NCBI GenBank assembly: GCA_965261475.1
Contig: OZ253454.1
Coordinates: 806,001 to 870,000, forward strand
Origin: G965261475 sp965261475 [NCBI: bacterium]
Lineage (GTDB): Bacteria > SAR324 > XYD2-FULL-50-16
Length of the DNA: 64,000 nucleotides
Reading direction: 5' to 3'
Shown here: piece after piece, positions 30,287 to 56,183 of the stretch
How positions within the stretch are numbered: position 1 is the stretch's first letter
How the letters are laid out: every line of letters begins with the position of its first letter
Position numbers and translations under genes: made by a program
Notes under the pieces: model-generated
Told to the model about the DNA's origin: nothing
The model's input: only the letters and a program-made list of their open reading frames with translations
Database searches by the model: none

Positions 30287-30308
30287 AGCACTTGCCTTGT
30301 GCTTTTTT
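30287..30308 (+). terminator. Hairpin plus T-run after K4
   Basis: AGCAC-TTGCCTT-GTGCT then T, 3 nt after the stop codon. Confidence 0.5.
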
Positions 30309-33324: not shown

Positions 33325-33332
33325 CAAAACCT

Positions 33333-33355
33333 AGCACTTGCCTTGTGTTTTTTTT
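33333..33355 (+). terminator. Hairpin plus T-run after K5
   Basis: AGCAC-TTGCCTT-GTGTT (one G-U pair) followed by a long T-run. Confidence 0.45.
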
Positions 33356-34194
33356 ACACTAACCCTGACAATCAAACATTCCGCTTGCTTGTTGCGTTTT
33401 TATATCACGCAAACCTGTAGCTATTAGACGAGCAATAAAACCTAGCACTTGCCTTGTGCGTTTTTACACTAACCCTGACAATCAAACATAGCACTTGCCT
33501 TGTGCTATTTTACACAACGCAAAGGCTCTGCGGTTGCAAGACAAACAATAAACCTAGCTTGTATTTTTTTTGGAGCTAGCTACTAGCTAGTCTGTCTATA
33601 GCTAGATAATAACTAGCCCTGACAATCAAACATTCCGCTTACTTGTTGCGTTTTTATACCACGCAAACCTGTAGCTATTAGACGAGCAACAAAACCTAGC
33701 TTGTATCTTTTTGAGAGCTAGCTACTAGCTAGTCTGCCTATAGCTAGATAATAACTAGCCCTGACAATCAAACATAGCGTTTGCATTGTGCTTTTTTACA
33801 CAACGCAAAGGCTCTGCGGTTGCAAGACAAGTAACAAACCTAGCTTGTATTTTTTTTTTTGGAGCTAGCTACTAGCTAGTCTGCCTATAGCTAGATAATA
33901 ACTAGCCCTGACAATCAAACATTCCGCTTGTTTGTTGCTATTTTACACTAGCCCTGATAACTAGCATAGCACTTGTGTTTTTTATACTTGCGTTGTGTGT
34001 TTTTACACAACGCAAAGGCTCTGCGGTTGCTAGACGAGTAACAAAACCTAGCTTGTATCTTTTTTGGAGCTAGCTACTAGCTAGTCTGCCTATAGCTAGA
34101 TAATACTAGCCCTGATAATTAAATATAAAGCTTGCATTTTTTATACAATCTTGACAATCAAACCTAGCACTTGCCTTGTGCTTTTTTACACTCG

Positions 34195-34284
34195 CCCTGA
34201 CAAGCAAACATAATACTTGTATTTTTCTTTTTTTACTCTAGTGTTAGTATATTACTATAACAATTTACCTACACTCTATCAATT
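34195..34284 (+). promoter_or_regulatory. K-family upstream leader (K6)
   Basis: CCCTGACAAGCAAACATAAT, then CTTGTATTTTTC, TAGTATATTACTATAACAAT and CTATCAATT before ATG. Confidence 0.55.
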
Positions 34285-36531: not shown

Positions 36532-36534
36532 CCT

Positions 36535-36556
36535 AGCACTTGCCTTGTGCTATTTT
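36535..36556 (+). terminator. Hairpin after K6
   Basis: AGCAC-TTGCCTT-GTGCT followed by ATTTT; only 3 nt after the stop codon. Confidence 0.4.
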
Positions 36557-37314
36557 ACACTAACCCTGACAATAAAACCTAGCACTTGCCTTGTGCGTTT
36601 TTACACTATCCCTGACAATAAAACCTAGCACTTGCATTGTGCTTTTTTACGCTAGCCCTGACAATAAAACCTAGCACTTGCCTTGTGCTTTTTTTATACA
36701 GCCCTGACAATAAAACCTAGCACTTGTATTTTTTACGCTCTGCAAGCTCTGCGGTTGCTAGACAAACAATAAAACCTAGCTTGTATCTTTTTAAGAGCTA
36801 GCTACTAGCTAGTCTGCCTATAGCTAGATAATACTAGCCCTGACAATTAAATATTCCGCTTGCATTTTTTATACAGTCTTGACAATAAAACATAGCACTT
36901 GTGTTTTTTACGCTCTGCAAGCTCTGCGATTGCTAGACGAGTAACAAAACATAGCACTTGCGTTGTGTGTTTTTACGCTCTGCAAACTCTGCGGTTGCTA
37001 GACGAGCAATAACCTAGCACTTGCCTTGTGCTTTTTTACACTAGCCCTGACAATCAAACCTAGCACTTGTGTTTTTTATACAGCCCTGATAACAAGGCTT
37101 GCGTTGTGCGTTTTTACGCTCTGCAAACTCTGCGGTTGTAAGACAAACAATAACCTAGCTTGTATTTTTTTTTTTTTGGAGCTAGCTACTAGCTAGTCTG
37201 TCTATAGCTAGATAATAACTAGCCCTGACAATAAAACATTCCGCTTGCATTGTGCGTTTTTACACTAGCCCTGACAATCAAACATAGCGCTTGCCTTGTG
37301 CGTTTTTACACTAG

Positions 37315-37404
37315 CCCTGACAATCAAACATAATACTTGTATTTTTCTTTTTTTACTCTAGTGTTAGTATATTACTATAAAAATTTACCTACACTCTATC
37401 AATT
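37315..37404 (+). promoter_or_regulatory. K-family upstream leader (K7)
   Basis: Canonical block, almost the same as the K5 leader. Confidence 0.55.
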
Positions 37405-39666
37405 ATGACAACCAACACAAAATATGCTAGACTCTTGAGCTTTATCAAGGACTATATCTTGTTACTACCCCTAACTTCTTTGTTTTTGCTTGCTGCTTGT
37501 AGTAGTGGTGGTGGAAGCAACCCATCTACTAAGACTTCGCTGAGTAATTTATCTATTGCAGACGCTACTGCTTTGGAGAGCGCAGGAGTTATGAAGTTTA
37601 CAGTGAGCTTAAATGCTACTTCTGATAGTACCACTTCCTTCTACTACAGAACAAAAAAAGGTAGTGCCAACAATAAAATAGTGTGGCAGCAAGCCCTTGC
37701 TGCTACTACATCTACTGAGCGCTGGGAAGCTAGGAGCGCTCATCAAGCTTTGGTATTCAAGAATCGTATGTGGGTACTAGGTGGTGTGGGTACTAGCAAT
37801 AACAAACTCAGTGATGTCTGGTACTCTAGCAACGGCACCAACTGGACTATGGCTACCGCAGATGCTGGCTGGGGAGCTAGGAGCGAGCATCAAGCTTTGG
37901 TATTCAAGAATCGTATGTGGGTGCTGGGTGGTTTTAAGTTGGGGGATGGGGCTAGATCAAGCCGCGATGTATGGGACTCTACCAACGGGGCAGATTGGCG
38001 CCAAGTTACCAGCAATGAAGCTTGGTCTGGAATTAGAATTACCTCAGTAGTATATAATAACAAAATGTGGATAATAGATGATACTAATACTAACGGTAAA
38101 CAGGAGATATGGAACTCTACCAACGGGGCAGATTGGCACCGAGTTACCAGCAATGCTGCTTTTCCTACCAGGCTTAGCCGGAGCTCCGTAGTATTTGACG
38201 GCAAAATATGGCTGCTAGGTGGTAAAGATCAAGGTGGTATAGACCACCAAAACGATGTCTGGTACTCTACCAACGGGGCAGATTGGCACCTAGTTACCAC
38301 AAATGCTGCTTGGTCTAAGAGAGTAGAACATACAACACTAGTCTTTGACGGCAAAATGTGGCTGCTAGGTGGTCAGGTGCTAGGTGCTCAGAATGCAAAA
38401 AATAAGTATCAAAACGATGTTTACTACTCTAGTAACGGGGCAGACTGGAGCAGACTGACCGCAGAGTCTAGCTGGGAAGCTAGGGAAAATAGTAGCTCTG
38501 TGGTCTTTGACGATAAAATCTGGGTGCTTGGTGGTGAGCTTGGGGATGTTCCTGCTAATGATATACATTTTGCCTACGCCGCAGGCGACTATCTTAGTGC
38601 TAGTAGTACAGGTACTATCCTAGGCGGAGAGCACAGCACTAGCATAGATATTACACTCCTAGACGATGATATTTTAGAGCTCACAGACGAGAGCTTTGAT
38701 ATTATTATCTCTCAGCCCATCAATGCTACTATAAACGCTATCTCTGGTTCTAATCAAGCTACAGCTAGTATTCTAGCAGACACTGCTAGCTGGAGCGAGG
38801 CTACCTCAGATGCCTCTTGGTCTGCTAGATATGCGCATAGCTCAGTGGTATTTAAGGATAAAATATGGGTACTAGGTGGTAGTAGCAGTAGTAGTAGTAA
38901 TACTAGCGATGTCTGGTACTCTAGCAACGGCATCAGCTGGGCTAGGGCTACCTCAGATGCTGGCTGGGAAGCTAGGAGCTCGCATAGCTCTGTGGTCTTT
39001 GACGATAAAATCTGGGTGCTAGGTAATAGTAATTGGTGGAGCTCTCAAAACGGGGTAGCTTGGACTAAAAGTACAGAGAAAAAGAGCTGGGAAGCAAGGA
39101 GCGGACAGAGCTTGGTAGTATTTAGTAACGAAGTATGGCTACTAGGAGGCAGTGATACTGGTGCTCTTAAAAACGATGTCTGGTATTATACTATAGCATT
39201 AAATAATATATTTCATAAAGTACGAGTTTGGAGAAAGCTTAAAGCTAATGATGATAACAATAATAGCTGGAGCGCTAGGCAAAATCATAGCTCAGTAGTA
39301 TATAAGGGCAGAGTGTGGGTACTAGGCGGTAATGACGGTAGCGATAAAAACGATGTCTGGAGCTCTAATGATGGCATCAGCTGGCGTGAGGCTACCACAA
39401 ATGCTAACTGGGAAGCTAGGAGCTCGCATAGCTCAGTGGTCTTTGATAACAAAATGTGGGTACTAGGTGGCAATGATGGTAGCGATAAAAACGATGTCTG
39501 GTACTCTACAGATGGCAAAAACTGGAGCAAAGCTAGTACAAGCAGTAGTATCTGGGACGCTAGAGATGCTCATAGCTCGGTAGTATTTAGGGACAAAATC
39601 TGGGTGTTAGGCGGCAAAGATAATATAGCAAACAAAAATGATGTCTGGTTTTTGAGCGAGCAATAA
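37405..39666 (+). CDS. K7: split Calx-beta with two Kelch propellers, 753 aa
   Basis: Lipobox LLAAC (Cys32), SSGGGSNPS. The closing Calx-beta half starts at about 394 (GDYLSASSTGTILGGEHSTS). Six blades precede it and six follow. Blade 3 lacks the GG turn (WIIDDTNTNG). Blade 8 is the short WWSSQNGVAW form, and blade 9 has the insert YYTIALNNIFHKVRVWRKL. Long stretches of its two propellers are nearly identical to K9 (for example GGFKLGDGARSSRDVWDSTN against GARASRD in K9), which points to gene conversion. The repeat AGTAGCAGTAGTAGTAGT near 38880 lengthens one loop by in-frame serine codons. Confidence 0.9.
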   Translation: MTTNTKYARLLSFIKDYILLLPLTSLFLLAACSSGGGSNPSTKTSLSNLSIADATALESAGVMKFTVSLNATSDSTTSFYYRTKKGSANNKIVWQQALAATTSTERWEARSAHQALVFKNRMWVLGGVGTSNNKLSDVWYSSNGTNWTMATADAGWGARSEHQALVFKNRMWVLGGFKLGDGARSSRDVWDSTNGADWRQVTSNEAWSGIRITSVVYNNKMWIIDDTNTNGKQEIWNSTNGADWHRVTSNAAFPTRLSRSSVVFDGKIWLLGGKDQGGIDHQNDVWYSTNGADWHLVTTNAAWSKRVEHTTLVFDGKMWLLGGQVLGAQNAKNKYQNDVYYSSNGADWSRLTAESSWEARENSSSVVFDDKIWVLGGELGDVPANDIHFAYAAGDYLSASSTGTILGGEHSTSIDITLLDDDILELTDESFDIIISQPINATINAISGSNQATASILADTASWSEATSDASWSARYAHSSVVFKDKIWVLGGSSSSSSNTSDVWYSSNGISWARATSDAGWEARSSHSSVVFDDKIWVLGNSNWWSSQNGVAWTKSTEKKSWEARSGQSLVVFSNEVWLLGGSDTGALKNDVWYYTIALNNIFHKVRVWRKLKANDDNNNSWSARQNHSSVVYKGRVWVLGGNDGSDKNDVWSSNDGISWREATTNANWEARSSHSSVVFDNKMWVLGGNDGSDKNDVWYSTDGKNWSKASTSSSIWDARDAHSSVVFRDKIWVLGGKDNIANKNDVWFLSEQ

Positions 39667-39671
39667 AACCT

Positions 39672-39694
39672 AGCACTTGCCTTGTGCTTTTTTT
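39672..39694 (+). terminator. Hairpin plus T-run after K7
   Basis: AGCAC-TTGCCTT-GTGCT then seven T, 5 nt after the stop. Confidence 0.5.
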
Positions 39695-39853
39695 ACACTA
39701 GCCCTGACAATCAAACATAGCGCTTGCCTTGTGCTTTTTTTACACTAGCCCTGACAATCAAACATAGCACTTGTGTTTTTTACGCTAGGCAAACTCTGCG
39801 GTTGCTAGACAAACAACAAAACCTAGCACTTGCCTTGTGCTATTTTACACTAG

Positions 39854-39943
39854 CCCTGACAATCAAACATAAAGCTTGCATTTTTCTTTTTTTTACTCTA
39901 AATATTACATATGTTATAAAGATTTACCTCTACCCTACCGATT
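39854..39943 (+). promoter_or_regulatory. K-family upstream leader (K8), divergent middle
   Basis: Starts CCCTGACAATCAAACATAAA but the middle reads CTAAATATTACATATGTTAT, and it ends CTCTACCCTACCGATT. K1 shares the CTCTACCCTA end, in line with K1 and K8 being sister genes. Confidence 0.5.
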
Positions 39944-42900
39944 ATGACAATTAACACAAAATATGCTAGCCTCTTAGGCTTTACCAAACACTATATCTTT
40001 TTACTACCTCTTGCGTCTTTGTTGCTACTTGCTTCTTGTGGTGGTGGCGGTGGAGGCAACCCATCTGATAATACTTCACCGAGTAATTTATCTATTGCAG
40101 ACGCTGCTACTCCAGAGAGTGCGGGAGTTGTAGAGCTCATAGTTACCTTAAATCCTACTTCTGATAGTGCTACTTCCTTCTATTACAGAACACAAGATGG
40201 CAGTGCTACAACCTCAGATTATACCAGTGTTACTAAAAAAACTGCTAGCATAGCAGCTGGCGCTAGCACTACAACTATTAGCATTACAATCATAGATGAC
40301 GCAACAGTAGAAGACGCAGAGAGTTTTGTTGTAGAAATTCTTGATTCTTCATCAAATAGCATACTTGATACAGCCACTGCTACTATCAAAATCAGTGATT
40401 TAAGCTTAGCTATTACTGACGCCACTGCTCTTGAGAGTGCAGGGAAAATAAAGTTCATAGTTTCTTTGAACGCTCTTTTTACCGGTAGCAAGGCTGTATC
40501 TTTTAACTACCGTACACTAGAATCAGATAGCATCAATAGTGCTAATGCCATTGCAGATGCTGACTATACTAGTAAAGATGGTAGAGCTACTATAGACAGT
40601 GGCGAGCTGACTACAAGTATTTTGATAGACATTAGCAATGATAGCGAAGTAGAAGACGATGAGATTTTTTACCTAGTAATTAGCAATCCTCACAATGCCA
40701 CTATAGACAAAAACAAAGCAAGTGCCACAGGCACTATCAAAATAGATGATTTACCAAGCTTATCTATTGCTGACGCTACTACTCTCGAGGGTACAGGTAG
40801 TATTAAATTTAGAGTTTCTTTGAGCGACCCCTTTCCCGGTGTCAAGGATGTAGTTTTTAACTACGAAACACGAGAAACAACTAGTACCGAAGTTGCTAAT
40901 GCCATTGCAGGTGCTGACTATACTAGTGACTCTGGTAGAGCTACTATAAACAGTGGCGAGCTGACTACAAGTATTTCGATAGACATTAGCAACGACACTC
41001 TAATAGAAGACGACGAGACTTTTTACCTAGTAATTAGTAACCCTCAGCCAAATATTACAATTACTAGAGGAATAGCCACTGGCACTATCAAAATCAATGG
41101 TTTAAGTTTATCTATTGCTGACGCTACTACTCTCGAGGGTGCAGGGAAAATAGAGTTCATAGTTTCTTTGAGCGCCCCCTTTCCCGGTGGCAAGGATGTA
41201 GTTTTTAACTACGAAACACGAGAAACAACTAGTACCAAAGTTGCTAATGCCACTGCAGGTGCTGACTATACTAGTGACTCTGGTAGAGCTACTATAAACA
41301 GTGTCACTCGAACTACAAGTATTTTTATAGACATTAAAGATGATAGCCTCGTAGAAGACATCGAGACTTTTTTGGTAGAAATTAGCCCTAACCAGCTAGA
41401 CATTCCTATCATCAAACCACAAGCTATAGGCACCATCAAGATTGATGAGCTACCAAGCCTGTCTATTACAGACGCCACTGCTTTTGAGAATGCAGGGGTT
41501 TTAACATTTACAGCTCGTTTAAGCGAGCCCTTTTCTCATAACACTGCTGTGAGCTTTGATTATCAAACAAAAAGAGGTAGTGCCAATAACAAAATAACGT
41601 GGCAGACAGCTACCGAAGATGCTGCTTGGTCTAAAAGGCTAGGGCATAGCTCTGTCGTCTTTAACGGCAAAATCTGGGTACTGGGTGGTAATGATGGTAG
41701 CCGCCGAAACGATGTTTACTACTCTAGCGATGGCAGCAACTGGCATACTGCTACCACAGATGCTGCTTGGACTCCTAGGCAGGGGCATAGCTCTGTGGTC
41801 TTTAACGGCAAAATCTGGGTGCTAGGTGGTAGTAGTGATGGTAGCGATAAAAAAGATGTCTGGTACTCTACAGATGGCATCACCTGGACTATGGCTACCA
41901 GAAATGCTGCTTGGTCTGCTCGCGCTAATCATAGCTCTGTGGTCTTTAAGAATAAAATCTGGGTAATGGGTCGCTACAAAAAAAACGATGTCTGGAGCTC
42001 TGATAATGGCATCAACTGGACTAAGGCTACCGAAAATGCTGCTTGGTCTGAAAGGAACGGTCATAGCTCGGTGGTCTTTGACGGCAAAATCTGGGTGCTA
42101 GGTGGTAATGAAAGCACAGGGGTTAGTAATAATCTTGGCGGCCGCAAAAACGATGTCTGGTACTCAACAGATGGTATCAACTGGGATTCTGCTACCACAG
42201 CTGCTGCTTGGTCTAAGAGGCAGAAGCATAGCTCTGTCGTCTTTGACGGTAAAATCTGGGTGCTAGGTGGTTCGGATAGTTATGCAAACAACAATGTCTG
42301 GTACTCTAGCAACGGGGCAGACTGGAGCGAGCTGCCCGCAGAGTCTAGCTGGAGAGCTAGGCTCTCGCATAGCTCTGTGGTCTTTGGCAATAAAATCTGG
42401 GTGCTAGGTGGCTATCAGGATATTGAAAATGCTAACAATATATTATTCAATGATATATATTTTGCCGACGCCACAGGCGACTATTTTAGTGCTAGTGGCA
42501 GTAGCTCTATCCCAGGCGGAGAGCGTGGCACTACTATAAATATTACACTCCTAGACGATGATATTTTAGAGCTAGCAGATGAGACCTTTGATATTATAAT
42601 TAGCAACCCCGTCAATGCTACTATAGACACTGCGGCTGGTGATAATCAAGCTACAGGCACTATAGCAGATATTGCTATCTGGACTAGAACTACCAATACT
42701 GCTAGCTGGAATTATAGGAGCGAGCATAGCTCTGTGGTTACTATGTTTGAGGGTGAGAATCTAATGTGGGTGATAGGTGGCAGAAGGAACAATACCGCCA
42801 GCGGCAATGGCTACTACTCAGCAGATGGCATCAGCTGGACTCAAAAAACAGGCGGTGTGTTTCCTGCTCGCTGGGGGCATAGCTCAGTCGTCTATAGCTT

Positions 42901-43588
42901 CGGCTCCTACGAAAATCGTATCTTGGTGCTGGGTGGCAAAAATGCTACAAAAGTATCAAAATTTTTCTTTAGATCTATTCAAGAGAATCCTACTGAAGGT
43001 GGCTGGGGGATTAATAATTTAATTAATCCTTGGAAGAGGTATGCGCTTAGCTCTGTAGTCTTTAAAGGTAAAAACTGGTTACTAGGTGGCAATAACAACA
43101 GTAAAAACTTCAATGATGTCTGGAGCTCTAGCTACTCTAGCTTTGCAGGAGGAGAGTTAAGTTGGGTAAAAGTTAAAGATGATAACGACACAGGCTGGAG
43201 CGCTAGGAGCGAGCATACCTCTGTGGTCTTTAACGGCAAAATCTGGGTGCTAGGTGGCAATGATGGTAGCAACAAAAACGATGTCTGGAGCTCAAGTGAT
43301 GGCACCAACTGGACTATGGATAACGAACATGCTGCTTGGAGTGCAAGGAGCGAGCATAGCTCAGTGGTCTTTGACGGCAAAATCTGGGTGCTAGGTGGCA
43401 AAACTAATAATGGCAGAGAAAATGATGTCTGGTACTCTACAGATGGCAAAAACTGGGGCAAAGTTACTACAAGTACAACTTGGAGTGCTAGGAGACAGCA
43501 TACCTCTGTGGTCTTTGACGGCAAAATCTGGGTGCTGGGTGGTAATGATGGCAACGACAAAAGAGATGTCTGGCATTTGAGCGAGTAA
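39944..43588 (+). CDS. K8: Calx-beta/Kelch lipoprotein, 1214 aa
   Basis: Lipobox LLASC (Cys32) then GGGGGGNPSD, whose glycine codons are interrupted by T, unlike the pure G tracts of K3 and K9. Four complete Calx-beta domains (about 48-503), then a fifth opening at about 504 (SITDATAFENAGVLTF). Six Kelch blades follow (553-844), the closing half at 845-910 (GDYFSASGSSSIPGGERGTT, DDDILELADETFDIIIS), and six further blades. Blades 7-9 are irregular (for example ILVLGGKNATKVSKFFFRS) and match the odd blades of K1. It ends KRDVWHLSE. K8 is closest to K1 overall, with fewer Calx-beta units. Confidence 0.9.
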   Translation: MTINTKYASLLGFTKHYIFLLPLASLLLLASCGGGGGGNPSDNTSPSNLSIADAATPESAGVVELIVTLNPTSDSATSFYYRTQDGSATTSDYTSVTKKTASIAAGASTTTISITIIDDATVEDAESFVVEILDSSSNSILDTATATIKISDLSLAITDATALESAGKIKFIVSLNALFTGSKAVSFNYRTLESDSINSANAIADADYTSKDGRATIDSGELTTSILIDISNDSEVEDDEIFYLVISNPHNATIDKNKASATGTIKIDDLPSLSIADATTLEGTGSIKFRVSLSDPFPGVKDVVFNYETRETTSTEVANAIAGADYTSDSGRATINSGELTTSISIDISNDTLIEDDETFYLVISNPQPNITITRGIATGTIKINGLSLSIADATTLEGAGKIEFIVSLSAPFPGGKDVVFNYETRETTSTKVANATAGADYTSDSGRATINSVTRTTSIFIDIKDDSLVEDIETFLVEISPNQLDIPIIKPQAIGTIKIDELPSLSITDATAFENAGVLTFTARLSEPFSHNTAVSFDYQTKRGSANNKITWQTATEDAAWSKRLGHSSVVFNGKIWVLGGNDGSRRNDVYYSSDGSNWHTATTDAAWTPRQGHSSVVFNGKIWVLGGSSDGSDKKDVWYSTDGITWTMATRNAAWSARANHSSVVFKNKIWVMGRYKKNDVWSSDNGINWTKATENAAWSERNGHSSVVFDGKIWVLGGNESTGVSNNLGGRKNDVWYSTDGINWDSATTAAAWSKRQKHSSVVFDGKIWVLGGSDSYANNNVWYSSNGADWSELPAESSWRARLSHSSVVFGNKIWVLGGYQDIENANNILFNDIYFADATGDYFSASGSSSIPGGERGTTINITLLDDDILELADETFDIIISNPVNATIDTAAGDNQATGTIADIAIWTRTTNTASWNYRSEHSSVVTMFEGENLMWVIGGRRNNTASGNGYYSADGISWTQKTGGVFPARWGHSSVVYSFGSYENRILVLGGKNATKVSKFFFRSIQENPTEGGWGINNLINPWKRYALSSVVFKGKNWLLGGNNNSKNFNDVWSSSYSSFAGGELSWVKVKDDNDTGWSARSEHTSVVFNGKIWVLGGNDGSNKNDVWSSSDGTNWTMDNEHAAWSARSEHSSVVFDGKIWVLGGKTNNGRENDVWYSTDGKNWGKVTTSTTWSARRQHTSVVFDGKIWVLGGNDGNDKRDVWHLSE

Positions 43589-43636
43589 TAAAACCTCGCA
43601 CTTGTGTTTTTTACACTAACCCTGACAATAAAACCT

Positions 43637-43659
43637 AGCACTTGCCTTGTGCTTTTTTT
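43637..43659 (+). terminator. Hairpin plus T-run downstream of K8
   Basis: The unit directly after the K8 stop is a shortened GCACTTGTG without a usable loop. The first proper AGCAC-TTGCCTT-GTGCT hairpin with T-run comes about 50 nt downstream. Confidence 0.4.
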
Positions 43660-44335
43660 ATACAGCCCTGACAATCAAACACAAGGCTTGCGTTGTGCGT
43701 TTTTACACTAGCCCTGACAATCAAACACAACGCTTGCGTTGTGCTATTTTACACTAGGCAAACTCTGTAATTGTGAGGCGAACAATAAACCTAGCGCTTG
43801 CTTGTTGCTATTTTACACTAGGCAAGCTCTGCGATTGCTAGACAAACAATAAAACCTAGCTTGTATCTTTTTTGGAGCTAGCTACTAGCTAGTCTGTCTA
43901 TGGCTAGATAATACTAGCCCTGACAATAAAACATAGCGTTTGCCTTGTGCTATTTTACACTAACCCTGACAATCAAACACAAGGCTTGCATTGTGCTATT
44001 TTACACTAACCCTGACAATCAAACACAACGCTTGCTTGTTGCTTTTTTACGCTAGACAAAGGCTCTGCGGTTGCTAGACGAGCAATAACCTAGCTTGTAT
44101 CTTTTTGAGAGCTAGCTACTAGCTAGTCTGCCTATAGCTAGATAATAACTAGCCCTGACAATCAAACATTCCGCTTGCGTTGTGCGTTTTTATACCACGC
44201 AAACCGTAGCTATTAGACAAACAATAAAGCCTAGCTTGTATCTTTTTGGAGCTAGCTCTACCTATCTGTCTATAACTAGATAATACTAACCCTGACAATC
44301 AAACATTCCGCTTGCTTGTTGCATTTTTACACTAG

Positions 44336-44450
44336 CCCTGACAATCAAATATAAAACTTGTGTAAATAATTCAGCATAAAACTTGTATTTTTCTTTTTTT
44401 ACTCTAGTGTTAGTATATTAGTATAAAAATTTATCTACACTCTATCAATT
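44336..44450 (+). promoter_or_regulatory. K-family upstream leader (K9), extended form
   Basis: Nearly identical to the K3 leader, including the CTTGTGTAAATAATTCAGCA insertion; it differs at TATTAGTATAA. The duplication of K3 and K9 therefore includes the leader. Confidence 0.5.
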
Positions 44451-47400
44451 ATGACAACCAATACAAAATATGCTAGACTCTTGAGCGCTACCAAACACTA
44501 TATCTTTTTACTACTGCTTGCGTCTTTGTTTTTGCTTGCTGCTTGTAGCGGTGGGGGGGGGGTAGTAATTCATCGGCTAGTGCTTCGCTGAGTAATTTAT
44601 CTATTGAGGATAGCTCTGCTTTTGAGGGCGCAGGAGCTATAGAGTTTATAGTTAGCTTAAATACTACTTCTAAGAGTGTTACTTCCTTTGATTACCGCAC
44701 AATCCCAAGTAGTGCTAGTGCTAGCTCTGATTATACCAGTGTTACTAAAAAAACTGCTAGCATAGCAGCTGGCAATAGCGCTACAATTATTAACATTGCC
44801 ATCAGAGATGACAAAGAAGTAGAGGACGCAGAGAGCTTTATTGTAGAAATTCTACAACCTTCATCAAATACCGTGCTTGACAAAGCCAGAGGCACTATTG
44901 AAATTGATGATTTACCAAGTCTAGCTATCACAGGTAGCTCCGCATCAGAGGACGCTGGGAGCATCAAATTCACAGCGAGCTTGAGCGAGGCTTTTCCTGG
45001 CAATATTGTATTCTTTGACTATGCAACAAGACCAATCAGTGCTAGCGCTACCATTGACTATACTAGTGTTTCTAGCACTGCTAGTATCCAAGCGGGCAAC
45101 ACTACAGCTGAGATTTTTGTAGATATTATCAATGATGCCAGCACAGAAGGCGATGAGGTTTTTGAGCTCAAAATTAGCAACCCCGTCAATACTACTATCA
45201 GCAAAGGACTTGCTCTAGGCGTTATCAAAGGCGAGCTACCTAGTTTATTTATAGCAGACGCTACTGCTCTTGAGAGTGATAGCAACATTAAATTCGTAGT
45301 TTCTTTAAGTAGAGCTATCAGCGAAACTCTATCCTTTAGCTATCAAACAAGACCAATCAGTGCCAGCGCTAACTTAGATTATATGAGCTCAACTAGCACT
45401 GCTAATATCAATGCAGGCGATACTACAGCTGAGATTTCTATTCGCATTATCAATGATACTCTCATAGAGAGCGATGAAACTTTTTTAGTGTCAATTAACA
45501 TTACTAACACTAATCCGCTCAATGTTCAAATTAGTAGAGACAAAGCCACAGCTACTATCAAAATAGATGAGCTACCAAGTCTAGCTATCACAGACGCTAC
45601 AACCCTAGAGGACGCAGGTAGTATCAAATTCCTTGTTTCTTTGAGCGAGGCTTTTCCCGACAATATTGTATCTTTTAACTACCGCATCATAGCAGGTAGT
45701 GCTAGTGCAGATTTAGATTATCGTCACTACCCTAGAACAGTTAGTATCAATGCAGGAGACACTACAGCTGAGCTCTCCGTTGCTATTATCAATGATACTC
45801 TCATAGAGAGCGATGAAACTTTTGACCTAGTAATTATTAACCCTATCAATGCCACTATCAACAAAAGCAAAGCAAGAGCCACTGCTACTATCAAAATAGA
45901 TGACCTACCAAGCCTAGCTATCGCAAACGCTACTACCCTAGAGGACGCAGGAAGTATCAAATTCCTTGTGAGCTTGAGCGCTCCTTTCCCGGGCAATATT
46001 GTATCCTTTGACTACGAAACAATCCCAAGTAGTGCCAGCGCAGACTCTGATTATACTAGTGTTTCTGGCACTGCTAGTATCCAAGCGGGCGATACCACAG
46101 CTGAGATTTTTGTAGACATTATCAATGACGCCAGTGCAGAAGGAGATGAGGTTTTTGAGCTCAAACTTAGCAACCCCGTCAATGCTATTATCAGCAAAGG
46201 ACTTGCTATAGGTATTATCAAAGGCGAACTAGCTAGTTTGTTTGTAGCAGACGCTACTACCCTTGAGAATGCAGGACGCATAAAATTCGTAGTTACCTTA
46301 AGTCAACTTCAACTCGAAACTGTTGTGTCCTTTGACTACCGCACAATAGCTGGTAGTGCCAGTGCCACCATAGACTATACTAGCTCCGTTGGCACTGCTA
46401 TTATCAATGCAGGCGAGACTAACACTGAAATTTTTATAGACATTATCAATGATGCCAGTGTAGAAGACGATGAGATTTTTTACCTAGAAATTAGTAGCAC
46501 TCAGTCAAATATTCCAATTAGCAGAGCGCGCGCCACTGCTACTATCAAAATAGATGACATACCAAGCCTAGCTATCGCAGACGCTACTAGCCTAGAGGGT
46601 GCGGGACGCATCAAATTCATAGCGAGCTTGAGCGAGGCTTTTCCCGGTAATCTGGTATCCTTTGATTACGAAACAATCCCAGGTAGTGCCAGCGCTAACC
46701 TAGACTATACTCCTTTCTCTAATAGAATCAGTATAGCAGCAGGCGAGACTAGAGCAGAGATTTTTATAGATATTATCAATGATGCCATCATAGAAGACGA
46801 TGAGACTTTTGCTCTAGTAATTAGCAACCCTCACAATGCTAGTATAACTAGAGATAGAGCCACTGCTACTATCAAAATCAATGATTTAAGTTTGTCTATT
46901 GCTGACGCTAGTGCTTTTGAGAATGTAGGTAGTATCAAATTGACAGTTTCTTTGAGTGCTCCTTTTCCTAGTAGCAAGGCTGTAGTCTTTAACTACCGCA
47001 CACTAGAAACAACTAGTGCTAATAGTGCTAGCTCAGGTGATGATTATACTAGCGTTGTTGCTGGTAGAGCCACTATCGCAGCGGGTGAGACTAGCACCGA
47101 GATTGTGATAGACCTCAGCGATGATAGCATCATAGAAGACGAAGAGAGCTTTTTGGTAGAAATTAGCAGTCCTCAGCCAAATATTCCAATTAAGATAGCA
47201 AGTGCCACAGCTACTATCAAAATAGATGATTTACCAATGTTAACTATCGCAGACGCTACTGCCCTTGAGAGTGATAGCAGTATCAAATTCACAGTTTCTC
47301 TAAGCGAGGCTTTCCCCGGTAATGATGTATCCTTTGACTACCGCACAATAGCAATTAGTGCTAGCGCAGACCTAGACTATACTAGTATTTTTGACACTAC

Positions 47401-50400
47401 TAGTATCAAAGCAGGCGACACCACAGCTGAGATTTTCATTGCTATTATCAATGATGCCAGTGTAGAGGACGATGAGACTTTTTACCTAGTAATTACTAAC
47501 CCCGTCAATGCTAGTATAGATATAGCGCGTGCTACGGCTACTATTAAAATAGATGACCTACCAAGTCTCTCTATCAAAGACGCTACTACCCTAGAGAGCG
47601 CAGGACGCATCAAATTTACAGTTTCTTTGAGCGAGGTTTTTCCCGGTAATCTTGTATCCTTTGACTACCACACAACAACAGGTAGTGCCAGCGCTAACCT
47701 AGACTATACTCCTTTCTCTAATAGAATCAGTATAGCAGCAGGCGAGACTAAAACTGAGATTTTTATAGATATTATCAATGATGCCAGTGTAGAAGACGAT
47801 GAGACTTTTGCTCTAGTAATTAGCAATCCTCACAATGCTACTATAGACAAAAACGCAGCGAGTGCTATAGGTACTATCAAAATAGATGACCTACCAAGCT
47901 TATCCATTGCAGGTAGCTCTGCGGAAGAAGAAAATGAAGATGGTAGTATCAGCTTCCTTGTTACTTTGAGCGAGGCTTTTCCCGGTAATGATGTATCCTT
48001 TGACTACCAAACAATAGCTGGTAGTGCCAGCGCAGACTCTGATTATACTAGTATTTCTGACACTACTAGTATCCAAGCGGGCGACACTACAGCTGAGATT
48101 TTCATTGCTATTATCAATGATGCCAGTGTAGAAGACGATGAGACTTTTATGGTAGTAATTAGCAACCCCTACAATGCTACTATAGACAAAAATAGAGCAA
48201 GCGCCATAGGCACTATCAAAATCAATGATTTAAGTTTGTCTATTGCCGATAGCTCTGTGAAAGAGAATGTAGGTAGTATCAAATTGACAGTTTCTTTGAG
48301 TGCTCCTTTTCCTAGTAGCAAGGCTGTAGTCTTTAACTACCGCACACTAGAAACAACTAGTGCTAATAGTGCTAGCTCAGGTGATGATTATACTAGCGTT
48401 GTTGCAGGTAGAGCGACTATAGACATTGACGATACCACTACCGAGATTGTGATAGACCTCAGCGATGATAGCCTCATAGAAGACGACGAGACTTTTTTGG
48501 TAGAAATTAGCAGTCCTCAGCCAAATATTCCAATTACTAGAGCGAGTGCCACAGCTACTATCAAAATAGATGACATACCAAGTCTATCCATTAAAGGTAG
48601 CTCTGCGGCAGAGAAAGATGGTAGTATTAGCTTCCTTGTTTCTTTGAGCGAGGCTTTTCCCGGTAATATTGTATCCTTTGACTACCACACAATCCCAATT
48701 AGTGCCAGCACTCAAGACTATACTAGTGTCGTCGCTGGCAGAGCTAGTATCCAAGTAAGCTACACTGCGACCGAGATTATGATAGACATTAGCGATGATG
48801 CTCTCCCAGAAGACGCTGAGACTTTTATGGTAGTAATTTCTAACCCCTACAATGCCACTATAGACATATCTCAGGCTACAGGCACTATCAAAATCAGTGA
48901 TTTAAGTTTGTCTATTGCTGACGCTAGCGCTTTTGAGGACGCAGGTAGTATCAAATTGAAAGTTTCTTTGAGCGCCCCTTTTCCTATTAGCAAAGTCGTA
49001 GTCTTTAACTACCACACAATAAACACAGGTAGTGCTATCGCAGGTACTGACTATACTAGCATCATTTCTGGCAGAGCAACTATAGACATTGACGATACCA
49101 CTACCGAGATTGTGATAGACCTCAGCGATGATAGCATCGTAGAAGACATCGAGACTTTTTTGGTAGAAATTAGCAGTCCTCAGCCAAATATTCCAATTAG
49201 TATAGCGCGTGCTACAGCTAGCATCAAAATAGACGACTTACCAAGTCTATCCATTGCAGGTAGCTCTGCGGCAGAGAAAGATGGCACTATCAGCTTCCTT
49301 GTTACTTTGAGCGAGGCTTTTCCCGGTAATGATGTATCCTTTGACTACAAAACAATAGAAATAGCAGATAGTGCCAGTGCAGATACTGATTATACTAGTA
49401 AAGCTAGCAGAGCTACTATAGCATCTGGCGAGCTGACTACAAGTATTTTTATAAATCTCAACGATGATATCCTCGTAGAAGACATCGAGACTTTTTTGGT
49501 AGAAATTAGTAACCCTCACAATGCCACTATAGACAAAAATAGAGCAAGAGCCATAGGCACTATTGAAATAGATGAGCTACCAAGCCTATCTATCGCAAAC
49601 GCTAGCGCTTTTGAGAGTGCAGGAAGTATCAAATTTAGAGTTTCTTTGAGCGAGGCTTTTCCCGGTAATGATGTATCCTTTGACTACCGCACAATAGCAG
49701 GTAGTGCTATGGCAGACATAGACTATACTAGTACTTCTGACACTACTAGTATCAAAGCAGGAGACACGACCGCTGAGATTTTTATAAAAATTACCCAAGA
49801 TACAGATGAAGAAAGCGATGAGGTTTTTAGCGTAGAAATTAGCAACCCCACCAATGCTAGCATCATCGGTCAAGGGCTAGCTAGAGGCGTCATCACGGGT
49901 GAGGTACCTATTTTGTTTATTACGGGTGGCTCTGCTATTGAGAGTGCAGGAAGTATCAAATTCGTAGTTACCTTAAGCAGAAAAACCGACAACGATGTCT
50001 CCTTTGACTACGAAACAAGAGACACAGGTAGTGCCAGCGCAGACCTAGACTATGCTAGTAAATCTGACAGAATAACTATAAAGACAGGTGAGGTTACAAC
50101 TGATATTTTGATAGATATTCTTGCTGATGCCAGCACAGAAGACGCTGAGACTTTTATAGTAGAAATCAGCAACCCTAGCAATGCCACTATAGACATATCG
50201 CAAGCTACAGGTACCATCAAAATCAATGGTTTAAGCTTATCTATTGCTGACGCTAGTGCTTTTGAGGACGCAGGTAGTATCAAATTGAGAGTGTCTTTGA
50301 GCGAGCCCTTTCCTAGTCGCAAGGCTGTAGCCTTTAACTACGAAACACGAGACACAGGTAGCCCCAATAGTGCTAGAGCAGGTGCTGACTATACTAGCGT

Positions 50401-52693
50401 CGTCGCTGGTAGAGCGACTATAGATATTGGTCAGACTAGCACCGAGATTATGATAGACATTAGCGATGATAGCATCGTAGAAGACATCGAGAGCTTTTTG
50501 GTAGTAATTAGCCCTAACCAGCTAGATATTCCAATTAGTAGAATGAGTGCTAAAGCTAGCATCAAAATAGACGACCTACCAAGCCTATCCATTGCAGGTA
50601 GCTCTGTAGCAGAGAATGCAGGGGTTGTAACATTTACAGCTAGTTTAAGCGAGCGCTTTCCCGGCAATCTAGTATCTTTTGATTATCAAACAAAAAGAGG
50701 TAGTGCCAACAATAAAATAGTGTGGCAGCAAGCCCTTGCTACTACTACATCTACTGAGCGCTGGTCTGCTAGGAACGCTCATCAAGCTGTGGTATTCAAG
50801 AATCGTATGTGGGTGCTAGGTGGTAATGGTATTGGCAATAACAAACTCAGTGATGTCTGGTACTCTAGCAACGGCATCAGCTGGACTATGGCTACCGCAA
50901 ATGCTGGCTGGGGAGCTAGGAGCAAGCATAAAGCTTTGGTATTCAAGAATCGTATGTGGGTGCTGGGTGGTTTTAAGTTGGGGGATGGGGCTAGAGCAAG
51001 CCGCGATGTATGGGACTCTACCAACGGGGCAGATTGGCGCCAAGTTACCAGCAATGAAGCTTGGTCTGGAGTTAGAAGTACCTCAGTAGTATATAATAAC
51101 AAAATGTGGATAATAGATGGTACTAATACTAACGGTAAACTGGGGATATGGGACTCTACCAACGGGGCAGATTGGCGCCAAGTTACCAACAATGCTGCTT
51201 TTCCTACCAGGCTTAGCCGGAGCTCCGTAGTATTTGACGGCAAAATATGGCTGCTAGGTGGTAAAGATCAAGGTGGTACAGACCACCAAAACGATGTCTG
51301 GTACTCTACCAACGGGGCAGATTGGCACCTAGTTACCACAAATGCTGCTTGGTCTAAGAGAGTAGAACATACAACAGTAGTCTTTGACGGCAAAATGTGG
51401 CTGCTAGGTGGTCAGGTGCTAGATGTAAAAAATAAGTATCAAAACGATGTTTACTACTCTAGTAACGGGGCAGACTGGAGCAGACTGACCGCAGAGTCTA
51501 GCTGGGAAGCTAGGGAAAATAGTAGCTCTGTGGTCTTTGACGATAAAATCTGGGTGCTTGGTGGTCGTGTATCATCTAGAAAGAATGATATACATTTTGC
51601 CTATGCCGCAGGCGACTATCTTAGTGCTAGTAGTACAGGTACTATTCTAGGCGGAGCGCGTAGCACTACTATAGATATTACACTCCTAGACGATGATATT
51701 TTAGAGCTCACAGACGAGAGCTTTGATATTATTATCTCTCAGCCCATCAATGCTACTATAGACGCTATCTCAGGTGATAATCAAGCTACAGCTAGTATTC
51801 TAGCAGACACTGCTAGCTGGGCTAGGGCTACCTCAGATGCTGGCTGGGAAGCTAGAAGCTCTCATAGCTCAGTGGTCTTTAAGGATAAAATCTGGGTGCT
51901 AGGTGGTAGTAGTAGCGGTAGTAATACTAGCGATGTCTGGTACTCTAGCAACGGCATCAACTGGGCTAGGGCTACCACAAATGCTGGCTGGGAAGCTAGG
52001 AGCTCGCAGAGCTCTGTGGTCTTTGATGACGAAATCTGGGTACTAGGTAATAGTAATTGGTGGAGCTCTCAAAACGGGGTAGCTTGGACTAAAAGTACAG
52101 AGAAAAAGAGCTGGGAAGCAAGGAGCGGACAGAGCTTGGTAGTATTTAGTAACGAAGTATGGCTACTAGGAGGTAGTGATACTGGTGCTCTTAAAAACGA
52201 TGTCTGGTATTATACTATAGCATTAAATAATAGGTTTCGTAAAGTACGAGTTTGGAGAGAGCTTAAAGCTGATGATGATAACAATAATAGCTGGAGCACT
52301 AGGCAAAATCATAGCTCAGTAGTATATAAAGGCAGAGTGTGGGTACTAGGCGGCAATGACGGTAGCCACAAAAACGATGTCTGGAGCTCTACAGATGGCA
52401 GCAGCTGGGCTGAGGCTACCACAGATGCTAACTGGGAAGCTAGGAGCGAACATAGCTCAGTGGTCTTTGATAACAAAATGTGGGTACTAGGCGGCAGTGA
52501 TGGTAGCGATAAAAACGATGTCTGGTACTCTACAGATGGCAAAAACTGGAGCGAAGTTACTACAATCAGTATCTGGGACGCAAGAGATGCTCATAGCTCG
52601 GTAGTATTTAGAGACAAAATCTGGGTGCTAGGCGGCAAAGATAATATAGCAAACAAAAATGATGTCTGGTTTTTAAGCGAATTAAACGAGTAA
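44451..52693 (+). CDS. K9: giant Calx-beta/Kelch lipoprotein, out of frame at a poly-G tract (phase OFF)
   Basis: ATG at 44451 opens the usual signal peptide with lipobox LLAAC (Cys32). The following poly-G tract has 10 G instead of the 11 in K3, so the frame shifts and ends at TGA 44589-44591 after 46 residues. One extra G would restore a frame open to 52693, giving about 2747 residues, almost the length of K3. The restored protein has 19 Calx-beta domains, the last one split by six Kelch blades (opening near 50582, closing near 51611 with GDYLSASSTGTILGGARSTT), and six more blades. The Calx-beta part is K3-like; both propellers are K7-like. The downstream frame shows no other damage, which favours a reversible switch over a pseudogene. 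A homopolymer sequencing error is the main alternative. Confidence 0.85.
44553..44562 (+). repeat. Poly-G tract (G10) in K9, out of frame
   Basis: Ten consecutive G after AGCGGT. The frame continues GGG GGG GGG GTA GTA ATT CAT and stops at TGA 44589. Adding one G restores the long frame, as in K3. Confidence 0.9.
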
Positions 52694-52701
52694 CAAAACC
52701 T

Positions 52702-52721
52702 AGCACTTGCCTTGTGTTTTT
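52702..52721 (+). terminator. Hairpin plus T-run after K9
   Basis: AGCAC-TTGCCTT-GTGTT (one G-U pair) then T, 8 nt after the stop. Confidence 0.45.
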
Positions 52722-53855
52722 ACGCTCTGCAAGCTCTGCGGTTGCAAGACAAACAATAACCTAGCACTTGCCTTGTGCTTTTTTACACTAGCCTTGATAA
52801 CAAGGCTTGTATTTTGCTTTTTGACACTCTGCAAGCTCTGCGATTGCAAGACAAACAATAACCTAGCACTTGCCTTGTGCTTTTTTTACACTAGCCCTGA
52901 TAACAAGGCTTGTATTTTGCTTTTTGACACTCTGCAAACTCTGCGGTTGCTAGACGAGCAATAACCTAGCGCTTGCCTTGTGCTTTTTTTACACTAGCCC
53001 TGATAACAACACTTGCCTTTTGCTATTTTACACAACGCAAAGGCTCTGCGGTTGCTAGACGAGCAATAACCTAGCACTTGCCTTGTGCGTTTTTATACCA
53101 CGCAAACCGTAGCTATTAGACAAACAACAAAACCTAGCTTGTATCTTTTTTGGAGCTAGCTACTAGCTAGTCCTATCTATAGACAAAAAATACTAGCCCT
53201 GACAATCAAACATAGCGCTTGCATTGTGCGTTTTTACACTGGCGTTGTGCTATTTTACACTAGCCCTGACAATCAAACATAAAGCTTGCTTGTTGCGTTT
53301 TTACACAACACAAAGGCTCTGCGGTTGCTAGACGAGCAATAACCTAGCACTTGCCTTGTGCTATTTTACACCACACAAACTCTGCGATTGCAAGACAAAC
53401 AATAAAGCCTAGCTTGTATCTTTTTTGTCGCTAGCTACTAGCTAGTCTGCCTATAACTAGATAATACTAGCCCTGACAATCAAACATTCCGCTTGCATTT
53501 TTTATACTTGTATTGTGCGTTTTTACACTAGCCCTGACAATCAAACATAGCACTTGTGTTTTTTACGCTATCCCTGACAATCAAACACAAGGCTTGCTTG
53601 TTGCTATTTTACACTATCCTTGATAACAAGGCTTGCATTGTGCGTTTTTTATACAGCCCTGACAATCAAACCTAGCACTTGCCTTGTGCTATTTTACGCT
53701 AGCCCTGACAATAAAACATAGCACTTGCATTGTGCTTTTTTACGCTAGCCCTGACAATTCAGCATAGCGCTTGCGTTGTGCGTTTTTACACTCGCCCTGA
53801 CAATCAAACATAACACTTGCATTTTTTATACTTGCGTTGTGTGTTTTTACACTAG

Positions 53856-53945
53856 CCCTGACAATCAAACATAAAACTTGTATTTTTCTTTTTTTACTCT
53901 AGTGTTAGTATATTACTATAAAAATTTATCTACACTCTATCAATT
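53856..53945 (+). promoter_or_regulatory. K-family upstream leader (K10)
   Basis: Canonical 90-bp block from CCCTGACAATCAAACATAAA to CTATCAATT, same middle as K5 and K7. Confidence 0.55.
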
Positions 53946-56183
53946 ATGACAACCAACACAAAATATGCTAGGCTCTGGAGCGCTACCAAACACTATATCT
54001 TTTTAATGTTGCTAGCATCTTCGTTTTTGCTTGCTGCTTGTAGTAGTAGTGGTGGAAGCAACCCATCTGCTAAGACTTCGCTGAGTAATTTATCTATTGC
54101 AGACGCTACTGCTTTGGAGAGCGCAGGAGTTATGAAGTTTACAGTGAGCTTAAATGCTACTTCTGATAGTACCACTTCCTTCTACTACAGAACAAAAAAA
54201 GGTAGTGCCAATAATAAAATAGTGTGGCAAGAAACCCTTGATACTACTGAGCGCTGGGCAGCTAGGAGCGGGCATCAAACTGTGGTATTCAAGAATCGTA
54301 TGTGGGTGCTAGGTGGTAATAGTATTGGCAATAACCAATTAAGTGATGTCTGGTACTCTAGCAACGGCATCAGCTGGAACGAGGCTACCGCTGATGCTGG
54401 CTGGGGAGCTAGGAACGAGCATCGAGCTTTGGTATTCAAGAATCGTATGTGGGTGCTAGGTGGTTTTGAGGAGAATAATGCAAGAAGCGATGTCTGGAGC
54501 TCTACCAACGGGATAGATTGGCGCCTAGTTACCAGAAATGCTGCTTGGACAGCGGGTGGCAAGCATACCTCAGTAGTATATAATAACAAAATGTGGGTAA
54601 TAGGTGATGGTAATATAAGTAAGAAGGTATGGGACTCCGCCAACGGAGCAGATTGGCACCTAGTTACCAGCGATGCTGCTTTTCCTAGCAGGGATCAACA
54701 GAGCTCCGTAGCATTTGACGGCAAAATGTGGTTGCTAGGCGGTAAAAGTGATGGTAACAGAAACTACCGAAACGATGCCTGGTACTCTACCAACGGGGCA
54801 AATTGGTACCAAGCTACCACAAATGCTGCTTGGTCTAGGAGAACCTCTCATACAGCAGTAGTCTTTGACGGTAAAATGTGGGTACTAGGTGGTTTGGATA
54901 GAAATAATAAGCAACAAAACGATGTTTACTACTCTAGCAACGGGGCAGACTGGAGCAGGCTGACCGCAAAGTCTAGCTGGGAAGCTAGGAGCTCGCATAG
55001 CTCAGTAGTCTTTAAGAATAAAATCTGGGTGCTAGGTGGCAATAAGGATGTTAAAAATGCTGACGATATATTATTCAATGATGTATATTTTGCCGACGCC
55101 ACAGGCGACTATTTTAGTGCTAGTAGTACAGGTACTATCCTAGGCGGAGAGCACAGCACTAGCATAGATATTACACTCCTAGACGATGATATTTTAGAGC
55201 TCACAGACGAGAGCTTTGATATTATCATCTCTCAGCAGCCCATCAATGCTACTATAAACGCTATCTCTGGTTCTAATCAAGCTACAGCTAGTATTCTAGC
55301 AGACACTGCTAGCTGGAGCGAGGCTACCTCAGATGCCTCTTGGTCTGCTAGATATGCGCATAGCTCAGTGGTATTTGATGATAAAATATGGGTACTAGGT
55401 GGTAGTAGCAGTAGTAGTAGTAATACTAGCGATGTCTGGTACTCTAGCAACGGCATCAGCTGGAGCGAGGCTACCTCAGATGCTGGCTGGGAAGCTAGGA
55501 GCTCGCAGAGCTCTGTGGTCTTTGATGACGAAATCTGGGTACTAGGTAATAGTAATTGGTGGAGCTCTCAAAACGGGGTAGCTTGGACTAAAAGTACAGA
55601 GAAAAAGAGCTGGGAAGCAAGGAGCGGACAGAGCTTGATAGTATTTAGGAACGAAATATGGCTACTAGGAGGCAGTGATGCTGGTGCTCTTAAAAACGAT
55701 GTCTGGTATTATGCTACAGAATTCCCTATTTTCCATCCAGTAACAGCTTGGAGAGAGCGTAAAGCTGATGATGATAACAATGATAGCTGGAGCGCTAGGC
55801 AAAATCATAGCTCAGTAGTATATAAAGGCAAAGTGTGGCTACTAGGCGGTAATGACGGCAGCTACAAAAACGATGTCTGGTACTCTACAGATGGCAGCAG
55901 CTGGCGTGAGGCTACCACAAATGCTAACTGGGAAGCTAGGAGCGAACATAGCTCAGTGGTCTTTGATAACAAAATGTGGGTACTAGGTGGCAGTGATGGT
56001 AGCGATAAAAACGATGTCTGGTACTCTACAGATGGCAAAAACTGGAGCGAAGTTACTACAAGCAGTATCTGGGACGCAAGAGATGCTCATAGCTCAGTGG
56101 TATTTAAGGATAAAATCTGGGTGCTAGGTGGCAAAGATAATATAGCAAACAAAAATGATGTCTGGTTTTTGAGCGAGCAATAA
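53946..56183 (+). CDS. K10: split Calx-beta with two Kelch propellers, 745 aa
   Basis: Signal peptide slightly different in its core (FLMLLASSFLLAAC; Cys32), then SSSGGSNPS. The Calx-beta closing half is at about 387-452 (GDYFSASSTGTILGGEHSTS). It is a mosaic: blades 2-5 follow K2 (ISKKVWDSANGADW, NYRNDAWYSTNGANW), blade 6 follows K8 (NADDILFNDVYFADATGDYF), and the second propeller follows K6 and K7, with the short WWSSQNGVAW blade and its own variable insert (YYATEFPIFHPVTAWRERK). Ends NDVWFLSEQ. Last member of the array before the housekeeping genes resume. Confidence 0.9.
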   Translation: MTTNTKYARLWSATKHYIFLMLLASSFLLAACSSSGGSNPSAKTSLSNLSIADATALESAGVMKFTVSLNATSDSTTSFYYRTKKGSANNKIVWQETLDTTERWAARSGHQTVVFKNRMWVLGGNSIGNNQLSDVWYSSNGISWNEATADAGWGARNEHRALVFKNRMWVLGGFEENNARSDVWSSTNGIDWRLVTRNAAWTAGGKHTSVVYNNKMWVIGDGNISKKVWDSANGADWHLVTSDAAFPSRDQQSSVAFDGKMWLLGGKSDGNRNYRNDAWYSTNGANWYQATTNAAWSRRTSHTAVVFDGKMWVLGGLDRNNKQQNDVYYSSNGADWSRLTAKSSWEARSSHSSVVFKNKIWVLGGNKDVKNADDILFNDVYFADATGDYFSASSTGTILGGEHSTSIDITLLDDDILELTDESFDIIISQQPINATINAISGSNQATASILADTASWSEATSDASWSARYAHSSVVFDDKIWVLGGSSSSSSNTSDVWYSSNGISWSEATSDAGWEARSSQSSVVFDDEIWVLGNSNWWSSQNGVAWTKSTEKKSWEARSGQSLIVFRNEIWLLGGSDAGALKNDVWYYATEFPIFHPVTAWRERKADDDNNDSWSARQNHSSVVYKGKVWLLGGNDGSYKNDVWYSTDGSSWREATTNANWEARSEHSSVVFDNKMWVLGGSDGSDKNDVWYSTDGKNWSEVTTSSIWDARDAHSSVVFKDKIWVLGGKDNIANKNDVWFLSEQ

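What the first reader, a model, noticed from the sequence alone, without database searches (positions are those of the whole stretch)
44451..44591. Poly-G ON/OFF switch behind the lipobox of K9, with the ON state preserved in K3
K9 has G10 (44553-44562), which puts the 2.7-kilocodon frame out of register and stops at 44591. Its near-duplicate K3 has G11 (18590-18600) and is in frame. The other eight K genes have T-interrupted glycine or serine codons here and cannot slip this way. The tract lies between the signal peptide and the mature protein, so slippage would switch lipoprotein export all-or-none. The rest of K9 is undamaged. This is the standard logic of phase-variable surface proteins, but the placement in giant Calx-beta/Kelch lipoproteins is, to my knowledge, undescribed.
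Basis: partly seen in the sequence, partly recalled or inferred. Interest (0 to 1): 0.85.

Follow-up and report, generated by a model that had tools for sequence, protein, structure and literature searches.

The report
Poly-G switch in giant surface lipoproteins
Two giant lipoprotein genes of an unplaced bacterium carry a run of ten or eleven G bases just behind their membrane-anchor signal, one in frame and one out of frame, which looks like a well-known kind of random ON/OFF switch, although no read data were available to prove that it switches.

Summary
The only G runs of 7 or more in 64 kb are G11 at 18590-18600 (K3, open frame, 2745 aa) and G10 at 44553-44562 (K9, stop at 44589-44591). 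Both sit just after the lipobox cysteine; the other eight K genes use mixed codons there. K9 is otherwise open for 2709 codons. In an 832-bp block where K3 and K9 are almost identical, the tract is the only indel. The best reading is a simple-sequence contingency locus (translational phase variation), with K3 caught ON and K9 OFF (about 0.6). A homopolymer error in the assembly is the main rival and could not be excluded: no reads, isolates or close relatives were available. Two corrections: the tract lies inside the mature N-terminus, so the OFF frame still encodes a 15-residue lipopeptide; and K3 and K9 are mosaics, sharing the start and a related Calx-beta stalk, while K3's Kelch head is closest to K5's (81%) and K9's to K7's (90%), so switching K9 would show a different head. 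The mechanism is well known (pilC1/2, hpuA, nalP, and a gonococcal 'repetitive large surface lipoprotein' candidate). This is a new member of a known kind, in an unusual protein family and an unplaced lineage.

The parts
44451..44591 (+). K9 start, signal peptide, lipobox and truncated reading frame (46 codons and stop)
44544..44546 (+). [quoted passage not shown]
44553..44562 (+). G10 tract of K9, out of register with the downstream frame
44564..52693 (+). K9 body, open for 2709 codons; homologous to the Calx-beta stalk and Kelch head of K3
   Evidence: the Pfam scan was run on K3, not on K9
18488..26725 (+). K3, same tract in the open register; 2745 aa, 18 Calx-beta stretches then Kelch repeats
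18590..18600 (+). G11 tract of K3
18373..19204 (+). K3 half of the nearly identical 832-bp block; inside it 2 substitutions and the tract length are the only differences from K9 44336-45166
44336..45166 (+). K9 half of the nearly identical block (831 bp)
24725..26722 (+). K3 Kelch head (81% aa to K5, 73% to K9)
50669..52690 (+). K9 Kelch head (90% aa to K7, 73% to K3)
9276..56183 (+). Array of ten paralogous lipoprotein genes K1-K10 with related signal peptides; K1, K2, K4-K8 and K10 have no G run of 7 or more

Best explanation
K3 and K9 are two simple-sequence contingency loci. Slipped-strand mispairing during replication lengthens or shortens the G tract just behind the lipobox. One register in three reads on into the ~2.7-kilocodon lipoprotein; the other two stop within 37-47 codons and give only a signal peptide plus a very short lipopeptide. 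Each gene would therefore flip at random between showing and not showing a giant Calx-beta-stalk, Kelch-head lipoprotein. In the sequenced state K3 is ON and K9 is OFF. Because the two share the 5' region and a related stalk but carry different Kelch heads, a flip would change which head is displayed as well as how much. Shown: tracts, frames, intact downstream gene, near-identical 5' blocks, mosaic heads. Inferred: slippage, reversibility, surface display, binding role of the heads.
For: Only two G runs of 7 or more in 64 kb, both at the homologous site behind the lipobox, about 0.004 runs of G10+ expected. Three consecutive GGG codons where GGG is 8.1% of Gly codons. Register arithmetic: one register in three open, two closed within 37-47 codons, for both genes. 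In the 832-bp homogenised block the tract is the only indel, beside 2 substitutions; uniform placement of 3 changes would hit the tract with P=0.039. K9 has 2709 codons without a stop although K3 and K9 differ at 944 of 8052 aligned sites; about 11.5 stops would be expected on a neutral K9 branch carrying half of them. dN 0.107, dS 0.205. On a DNA-level alignment 19 of 21 gaps are multiples of 3 and the other two lie close together and sum to 36 net. 65 A/T runs of 7 or more lie inside coding regions and none of the other nine K genes has an internal stop. Published parallels: hpuA, pilC, nalP (passages).
Against: No reads, second isolate or close relative: tract-length variation within a population was not observed. 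A single length difference between two paralogs is one event, and P=0.039 is weak. Part of K9's integrity may come from gene conversion with intact paralogs, so it shows that K9 was translated for most of its history, not that the present state is reversible. Accuracy at long G runs cannot be calibrated, because the window holds no other. The lipobox-plus-poly-G arrangement shows no clear enrichment over the reversed-pattern control in 595 other genomes (6 v 5 of 296, 21 v 17 of 299).
Confidence: 0.6

Rival explanations
1. Assembly or base-calling error: both genes really have the same tract length and one homopolymer was miscounted. The long near-identical repeats suggest (inference) that the contig rests on long reads, whose typical error is homopolymer length.
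For: The two lengths differ by one base in a ~10-base homopolymer; on the 3' side the flank is identical for about 600 bases, so read mis-assignment between K3 and K9 is also possible. No other long G run exists to calibrate accuracy.
Against: 65 A/T runs of 7 or more inside coding regions, 6 of them 9 or longer, and none of the other nine K genes has an internal stop. The tracts themselves, the unusual feature, would remain even if the length of one were wrong.
Confidence: 0.22
2. K9 was permanently inactivated recently by a one-base tract change and is on its way to becoming a pseudogene; the tract slips, but there is no selected switch.
For: One frameshift in an otherwise clean gene is what a very young pseudogene looks like; paralogs could cover the function (inference).
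Against: A pure G tract is an easily reverted kind of frameshift (general knowledge), and the same tract is kept in K3. Eight paralogs show that the linker can be encoded without the tract.
Confidence: 0.12
3. RNA-polymerase or ribosome slippage on the G tract yields some full-length K9 from the out-of-frame gene, so the tract tunes the level rather than switching all-or-none.
For: Long homopolymers can be slippery for RNA polymerase (general knowledge, not tested here).
Against: No element that would favour programmed frameshifting was looked for, so this rests only on replication slippage being the usual cause at such tracts.
Confidence: 0.06

Closest known systems
Neisseria hpuA (haemoglobin receptor lipoprotein)
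   Same: Surface lipoprotein with a poly-G tract in its reading frame; ON/OFF by frame; tract range 7G-19G; ON reported at 7, 10, 13, 16 and 19, though the paper notes that polymorphisms near the tract upset this rule in some isolates (PMC3786947, PMC3352162, passages).
   Different: Receptor of about 37 kDa, not a giant Calx-beta/Kelch protein; tract variation established in isolates. Where exactly its tract lies relative to the lipobox was not stated in the passages seen.
Neisseria pilC1/pilC2
   Same: Two copies of one gene subject to phase variation; [quoted passage not shown] PMC5953494 table G 9-20, its running text says polyC; passages).
   Different: Pilus proteins; no Pfam match listed for the nine K genes scanned points to PilC.
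Neisseria meningitidis nalP
   Same: Lipid-anchored surface protein switched by a homopolymer in the coding region; tract 6-15 bp, ON at 7, 10, 13 (PMC5472700, PMC3723659, passages). From recall only: glycines follow its lipobox.
   Different: Autotransporter protease; tract listed as poly-C.
Gonococcal 'repetitive large surface lipoprotein' (NGO_09875/09870, NGK_2422/2423)
   Same: Large repetitive surface lipoprotein listed with a short G tract, (G)7 or (G)8 by strain, as a phase-variation candidate (PMC5320596, table passages).
   Different: Candidate only; domain content not given in the passages seen; tract shorter.
Mycoplasma hominis vaa and M. fermentans P78 (recalled, not looked up)
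   Same: Lipoproteins switched by a homopolymer near the start of the mature protein.
   Different: Poly-A tracts, no outer membrane.

Membership tests
Simple-sequence contingency locus (translational phase variation) | Repeat tract long enough to be hypermutable (G of 9 or more) | tested here: met
   G10 and G11; threshold as used in PMC5953494 (passage)
Simple-sequence contingency locus (translational phase variation) | Tract in the 5' coding region so that length changes alter the frame | tested here: met
   One register in three open, others stop within 37-47 codons
Simple-sequence contingency locus (translational phase variation) | More than one tract length at the site | tested here: inconclusive
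   Two lengths, but at two paralogous sites of one assembly
Simple-sequence contingency locus (translational phase variation) | Length heterogeneity among cells or isolates | not testable with these tools
   No reads; no genome held for the window; no hit in viral contigs for two exact patterns
Simple-sequence contingency locus (translational phase variation) | Reversible ON/OFF of the protein | not testable with these tools
   Needs culture or reporter
Simple-sequence contingency locus (translational phase variation) | Product is a surface structure | tested here: inconclusive
   Lipobox signal peptide, Calx-beta and Kelch domains, Kelch-propeller matches for a moderate-confidence model of the K3 head; outer-surface location not testable
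HpuA/TbpB-type (Slam-dependent) surface lipoproteins | Homologous handle/barrel domains | tested here: not met
   Pfam matches listed for nine K genes (K1-K8 and K10) are Calx-beta and Kelch families plus three others (Eco57I and DUF5130 in K1, DUF6242 in K10), none of this type; K9 itself was not scanned

The most novel reading that the evidence does not exclude
A combinatorial surface system in an unplaced bacterial lineage: ten paralogous stalk-and-propeller lipoproteins whose Kelch heads are shuffled by gene conversion, with two giant members carrying independent poly-G switches on a shared 5' end and related stalk, so that tract slippage chooses which of two different heads is displayed.
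Probability: 0.25. Interest if true: 0.6.

Novelty: new member of a known kind. Interest (0 to 1): 0.42.

Why it matters
If true, it extends homopolymer phase variation, best studied in host-associated bacteria such as Neisseria and Campylobacter, to giant stalk-and-propeller lipoproteins in a lineage close to no genome that I could search. It would make testable whether that bacterium faces selection for surface variability (host immunity, phage, partner recognition), and it shows poly-G tracts together with head exchange between paralogs in one gene array.

Tried and rejected
GltX: 43% at best full length in 13 chosen genomes; best full-length identity 48% in 39 genomes of the phylum of that MAG and 48% in 296 of the Bacteroidota draw, with one partial match at 49%; no match at E<=1e-110 in 299 of the Pseudomonadota draw. 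The lineage stays unplaced. K10 against the 296-genome Bacteroidota draw: 1 genome at E<=1e-40, 34% identity. K3 in viral contigs: two phage-type Kelch proteins. K5 in plasmids: 14 records, all Leptospira, 39-42% identity.

Arguments rejected: counting whole-codon gaps on the protein alignment, because such gaps are multiples of 3 by construction (the probability printed for it is not used; replaced by the DNA-level count); internal starts as a way round the frameshift, because the first in-frame start after the tract is GTG 44873, codon 104, without a signal peptide; a promoter argument, because the scan of 43500-44800 found 4 sites against 2.9 (sd 1.8) in shuffles. The lipobox-plus-poly-G survey showed no clear excess over control. 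One search examined 40 loci from it and printed 11 rows that passed a filter (lipobox-like motif, start codon 12-45 codons upstream); judged by eye, three of them (L085, L112, L114) look like real lipoproteins with an open frame. Rows that failed the filter were not studied further.

Literature listings not followed up: 28 papers, 20 listed; 5 papers; one paper, on Mycoplasma agalactiae; 16 papers, 12 listed; 101 papers, 15 listed; none of the listed holds both Calx-beta and Kelch; 5 papers, none holds Kelch. In PMC5084427 a search for lipoprotein, hpuA and NHBA found nothing.

Full report
Check of the observation. The window contains exactly two G runs of 7 or longer: G11 at 18590-18600 and G10 at 44553-44562. 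First-order composition predicts about 0.004 runs of G10 or longer. Each lies in the same place: lipobox LLAAC, then codons AGC GGT and the tract. K3 reads through for 2745 aa; K9 stops at 44589-44591 after 46 codons. The other eight K genes encode the same Gly/Ser linker with mixed codons, mainly GGT, AGT and GGA, and GGC in K8. In the K genes outside the tracts GGG is 70 of 865 Gly codons, so a run of three GGG is unusual for this family.

Where the tract really lies. The K9 cysteine codon is 44544-44546, so the tract begins at residue +4 of the mature lipoprotein, not between signal peptide and mature part. In the present register the product keeps the complete signal peptide and lipobox and would mature to a 15-residue lipopeptide. 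What is switched all-or-none is the 2.7-kilocodon body, not entry into the lipoprotein pathway. In both genes one register in three is open and the others stop within 37-47 codons.

Is K9 otherwise intact? Downstream of the tract K9 has 2709 codons with no stop. Over 2684 aligned codons K3 and K9 share 83.2% of residues; 944 of 8052 nucleotides differ; dN 0.107, dS 0.205. If half of the differences arose on an unselected K9 branch, about 11.5 stops would be expected. At the DNA level 19 of 21 gaps are multiples of 3 and the remaining two lie close together and sum to 36 net. K9 has therefore been translated for most of its history; the out-of-frame state is recent or transient, or the assembly is wrong at this homopolymer. 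Exchange with intact paralogs may have helped to keep it clean.

The tract against its flanks. K3 18373-19204 and K9 44336-45166 form a nearly identical block; the differences inside it are two substitutions upstream of the tract and the tract length. Three uniformly placed changes would hit the 11-base tract with probability 0.039. This fits hypermutability but is one event.

K3 and K9 are mosaics, not duplicates. Divergence along the pair ranges from 0 to 37% per 100-codon window. Residues 39-540 are 99.0% identical, 540-2080 82.4%, the head 72.7%. In 200-base windows most of the first half of the K3 head is closest to K5 (about 97%) and most of the K9 head to K7 (up to 98%); one stretch near 25688 is shared by K3 and K9 (99%), and other windows are closest to K2, K6 or K10. 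At protein level the heads are K3-K5 81%, K9-K7 90%, K3-K9 73%. The natural reading is recombination among paralogs. Pfam finds 18 Calx-beta stretches followed by Kelch repeats in K3; K9 itself was not scanned. A model of the K3 head (mean pLDDT 71, pTM 0.49, four sequences) has two all-beta regions and a low-confidence middle; apart from large dynein-type complexes its top matches are Kelch propellers such as LZTR1 (TM-score by target about 0.8). A stalk carrying two propellers is thus likely; ligand binding is inference.

Assembly error. Reads were not available. 65 A/T runs of 7 or more lie inside coding regions and none of the other nine K genes has an internal stop, which suggests that homopolymers were generally well resolved, but nothing calibrates G runs. 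This rival keeps 0.22.

Relatives. No genome is held for the window. SucA, GltX, K3, K5 and K10 searches found nothing close in what they covered, and two exact patterns gave no viral-contig hit. Variation between isolates could not be examined. A survey for a lipobox-like motif followed by nine or more G matched 6 of 296 genomes of the Bacteroidota draw (5 of 296 with the reversed control pattern) and 21 of 299 of the Pseudomonadota draw (17 of 299 with the control), so there is no clear excess. Of 11 rows that passed the filter, three (L085, L112, L114) look by eye like real lipoproteins with open frames: the arrangement is uncommon but not unique.

Comparison with the known. Translational phase variation by homopolymer is standard: pilC1/pilC2 (PMC5320596, PMC5953494; passages), hpuA, a surface lipoprotein with tracts of 7G-19G (PMC3786947, PMC3352162; passages), and nalP, lipid-anchored with a tract of 6-15 (PMC5472700, PMC3723659; passages). 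A gonococcal 'repetitive large surface lipoprotein' with (G)7/(G)8 is a listed candidate (PMC5320596, passages). Searches combining Calx-beta, Kelch, lipoprotein, adhesin and phase-variation terms showed no report for this protein type in the open-access library (listings only, 15 of 101 papers seen). It works like those loci; whether it is one needs evidence of length variation, which is missing here.

Verdict. Observation confirmed, interpretation partly supported, kind already known, protein context and lineage apparently new. Confidence in phase variation 0.6; interest 0.42.

Noticed in passing
15602-15611, 33850-33860, 37165-37177: Copies of one intergenic repeat (CCTAGCTTGTA-T(n)-GGAGCTAGCTACTAGCTAGTC) upstream of K2, K6 and K7 carry T runs of 10, 11 and 13: length-variable runs that might affect spacing or expression.
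   Followed up: no
18200-18460, 26726-27200, 44160-44420, 52694-53200 and other K spacers: The spacers read around K3 and K9 consist largely of short related repeats; tblastn with K proteins found no K coding fragment in 11 spacers at E<=1e-3.
   Followed up: partly
whole window: Judged by eye, almost no Shine-Dalgarno-like sequence precedes the 24 starts printed; together with Bacteroidota-like SucA/SucB this hints at an unusual lineage.
   Followed up: partly
773-5498: SucA and SucB are closest to Bacteroidota among the loci fetched (SucA up to 55% identity; SucB C-terminal part about 61%), while GltX does not place the genome in any phylum sampled.
   Followed up: partly
L081 8264-10984; L082 5422-10017: Contigs of the viral collection encode proteins with many Kelch repeats of the same 'SSDG-NW' kind (about 41% and 34-37% identity to K3), in L082 among genes that look by eye like phage structural and terminase genes.
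   Followed up: no
28964-30283: K4 is much shorter (439 aa) than its neighbours and follows a 2.2-kb spacer; it may be a deletion product of a longer K gene.
   Followed up: no
6905-6915: An 11-base A run (T on the coding strand) lies inside the presumably essential rsmH, with the frame open.
   Followed up: no
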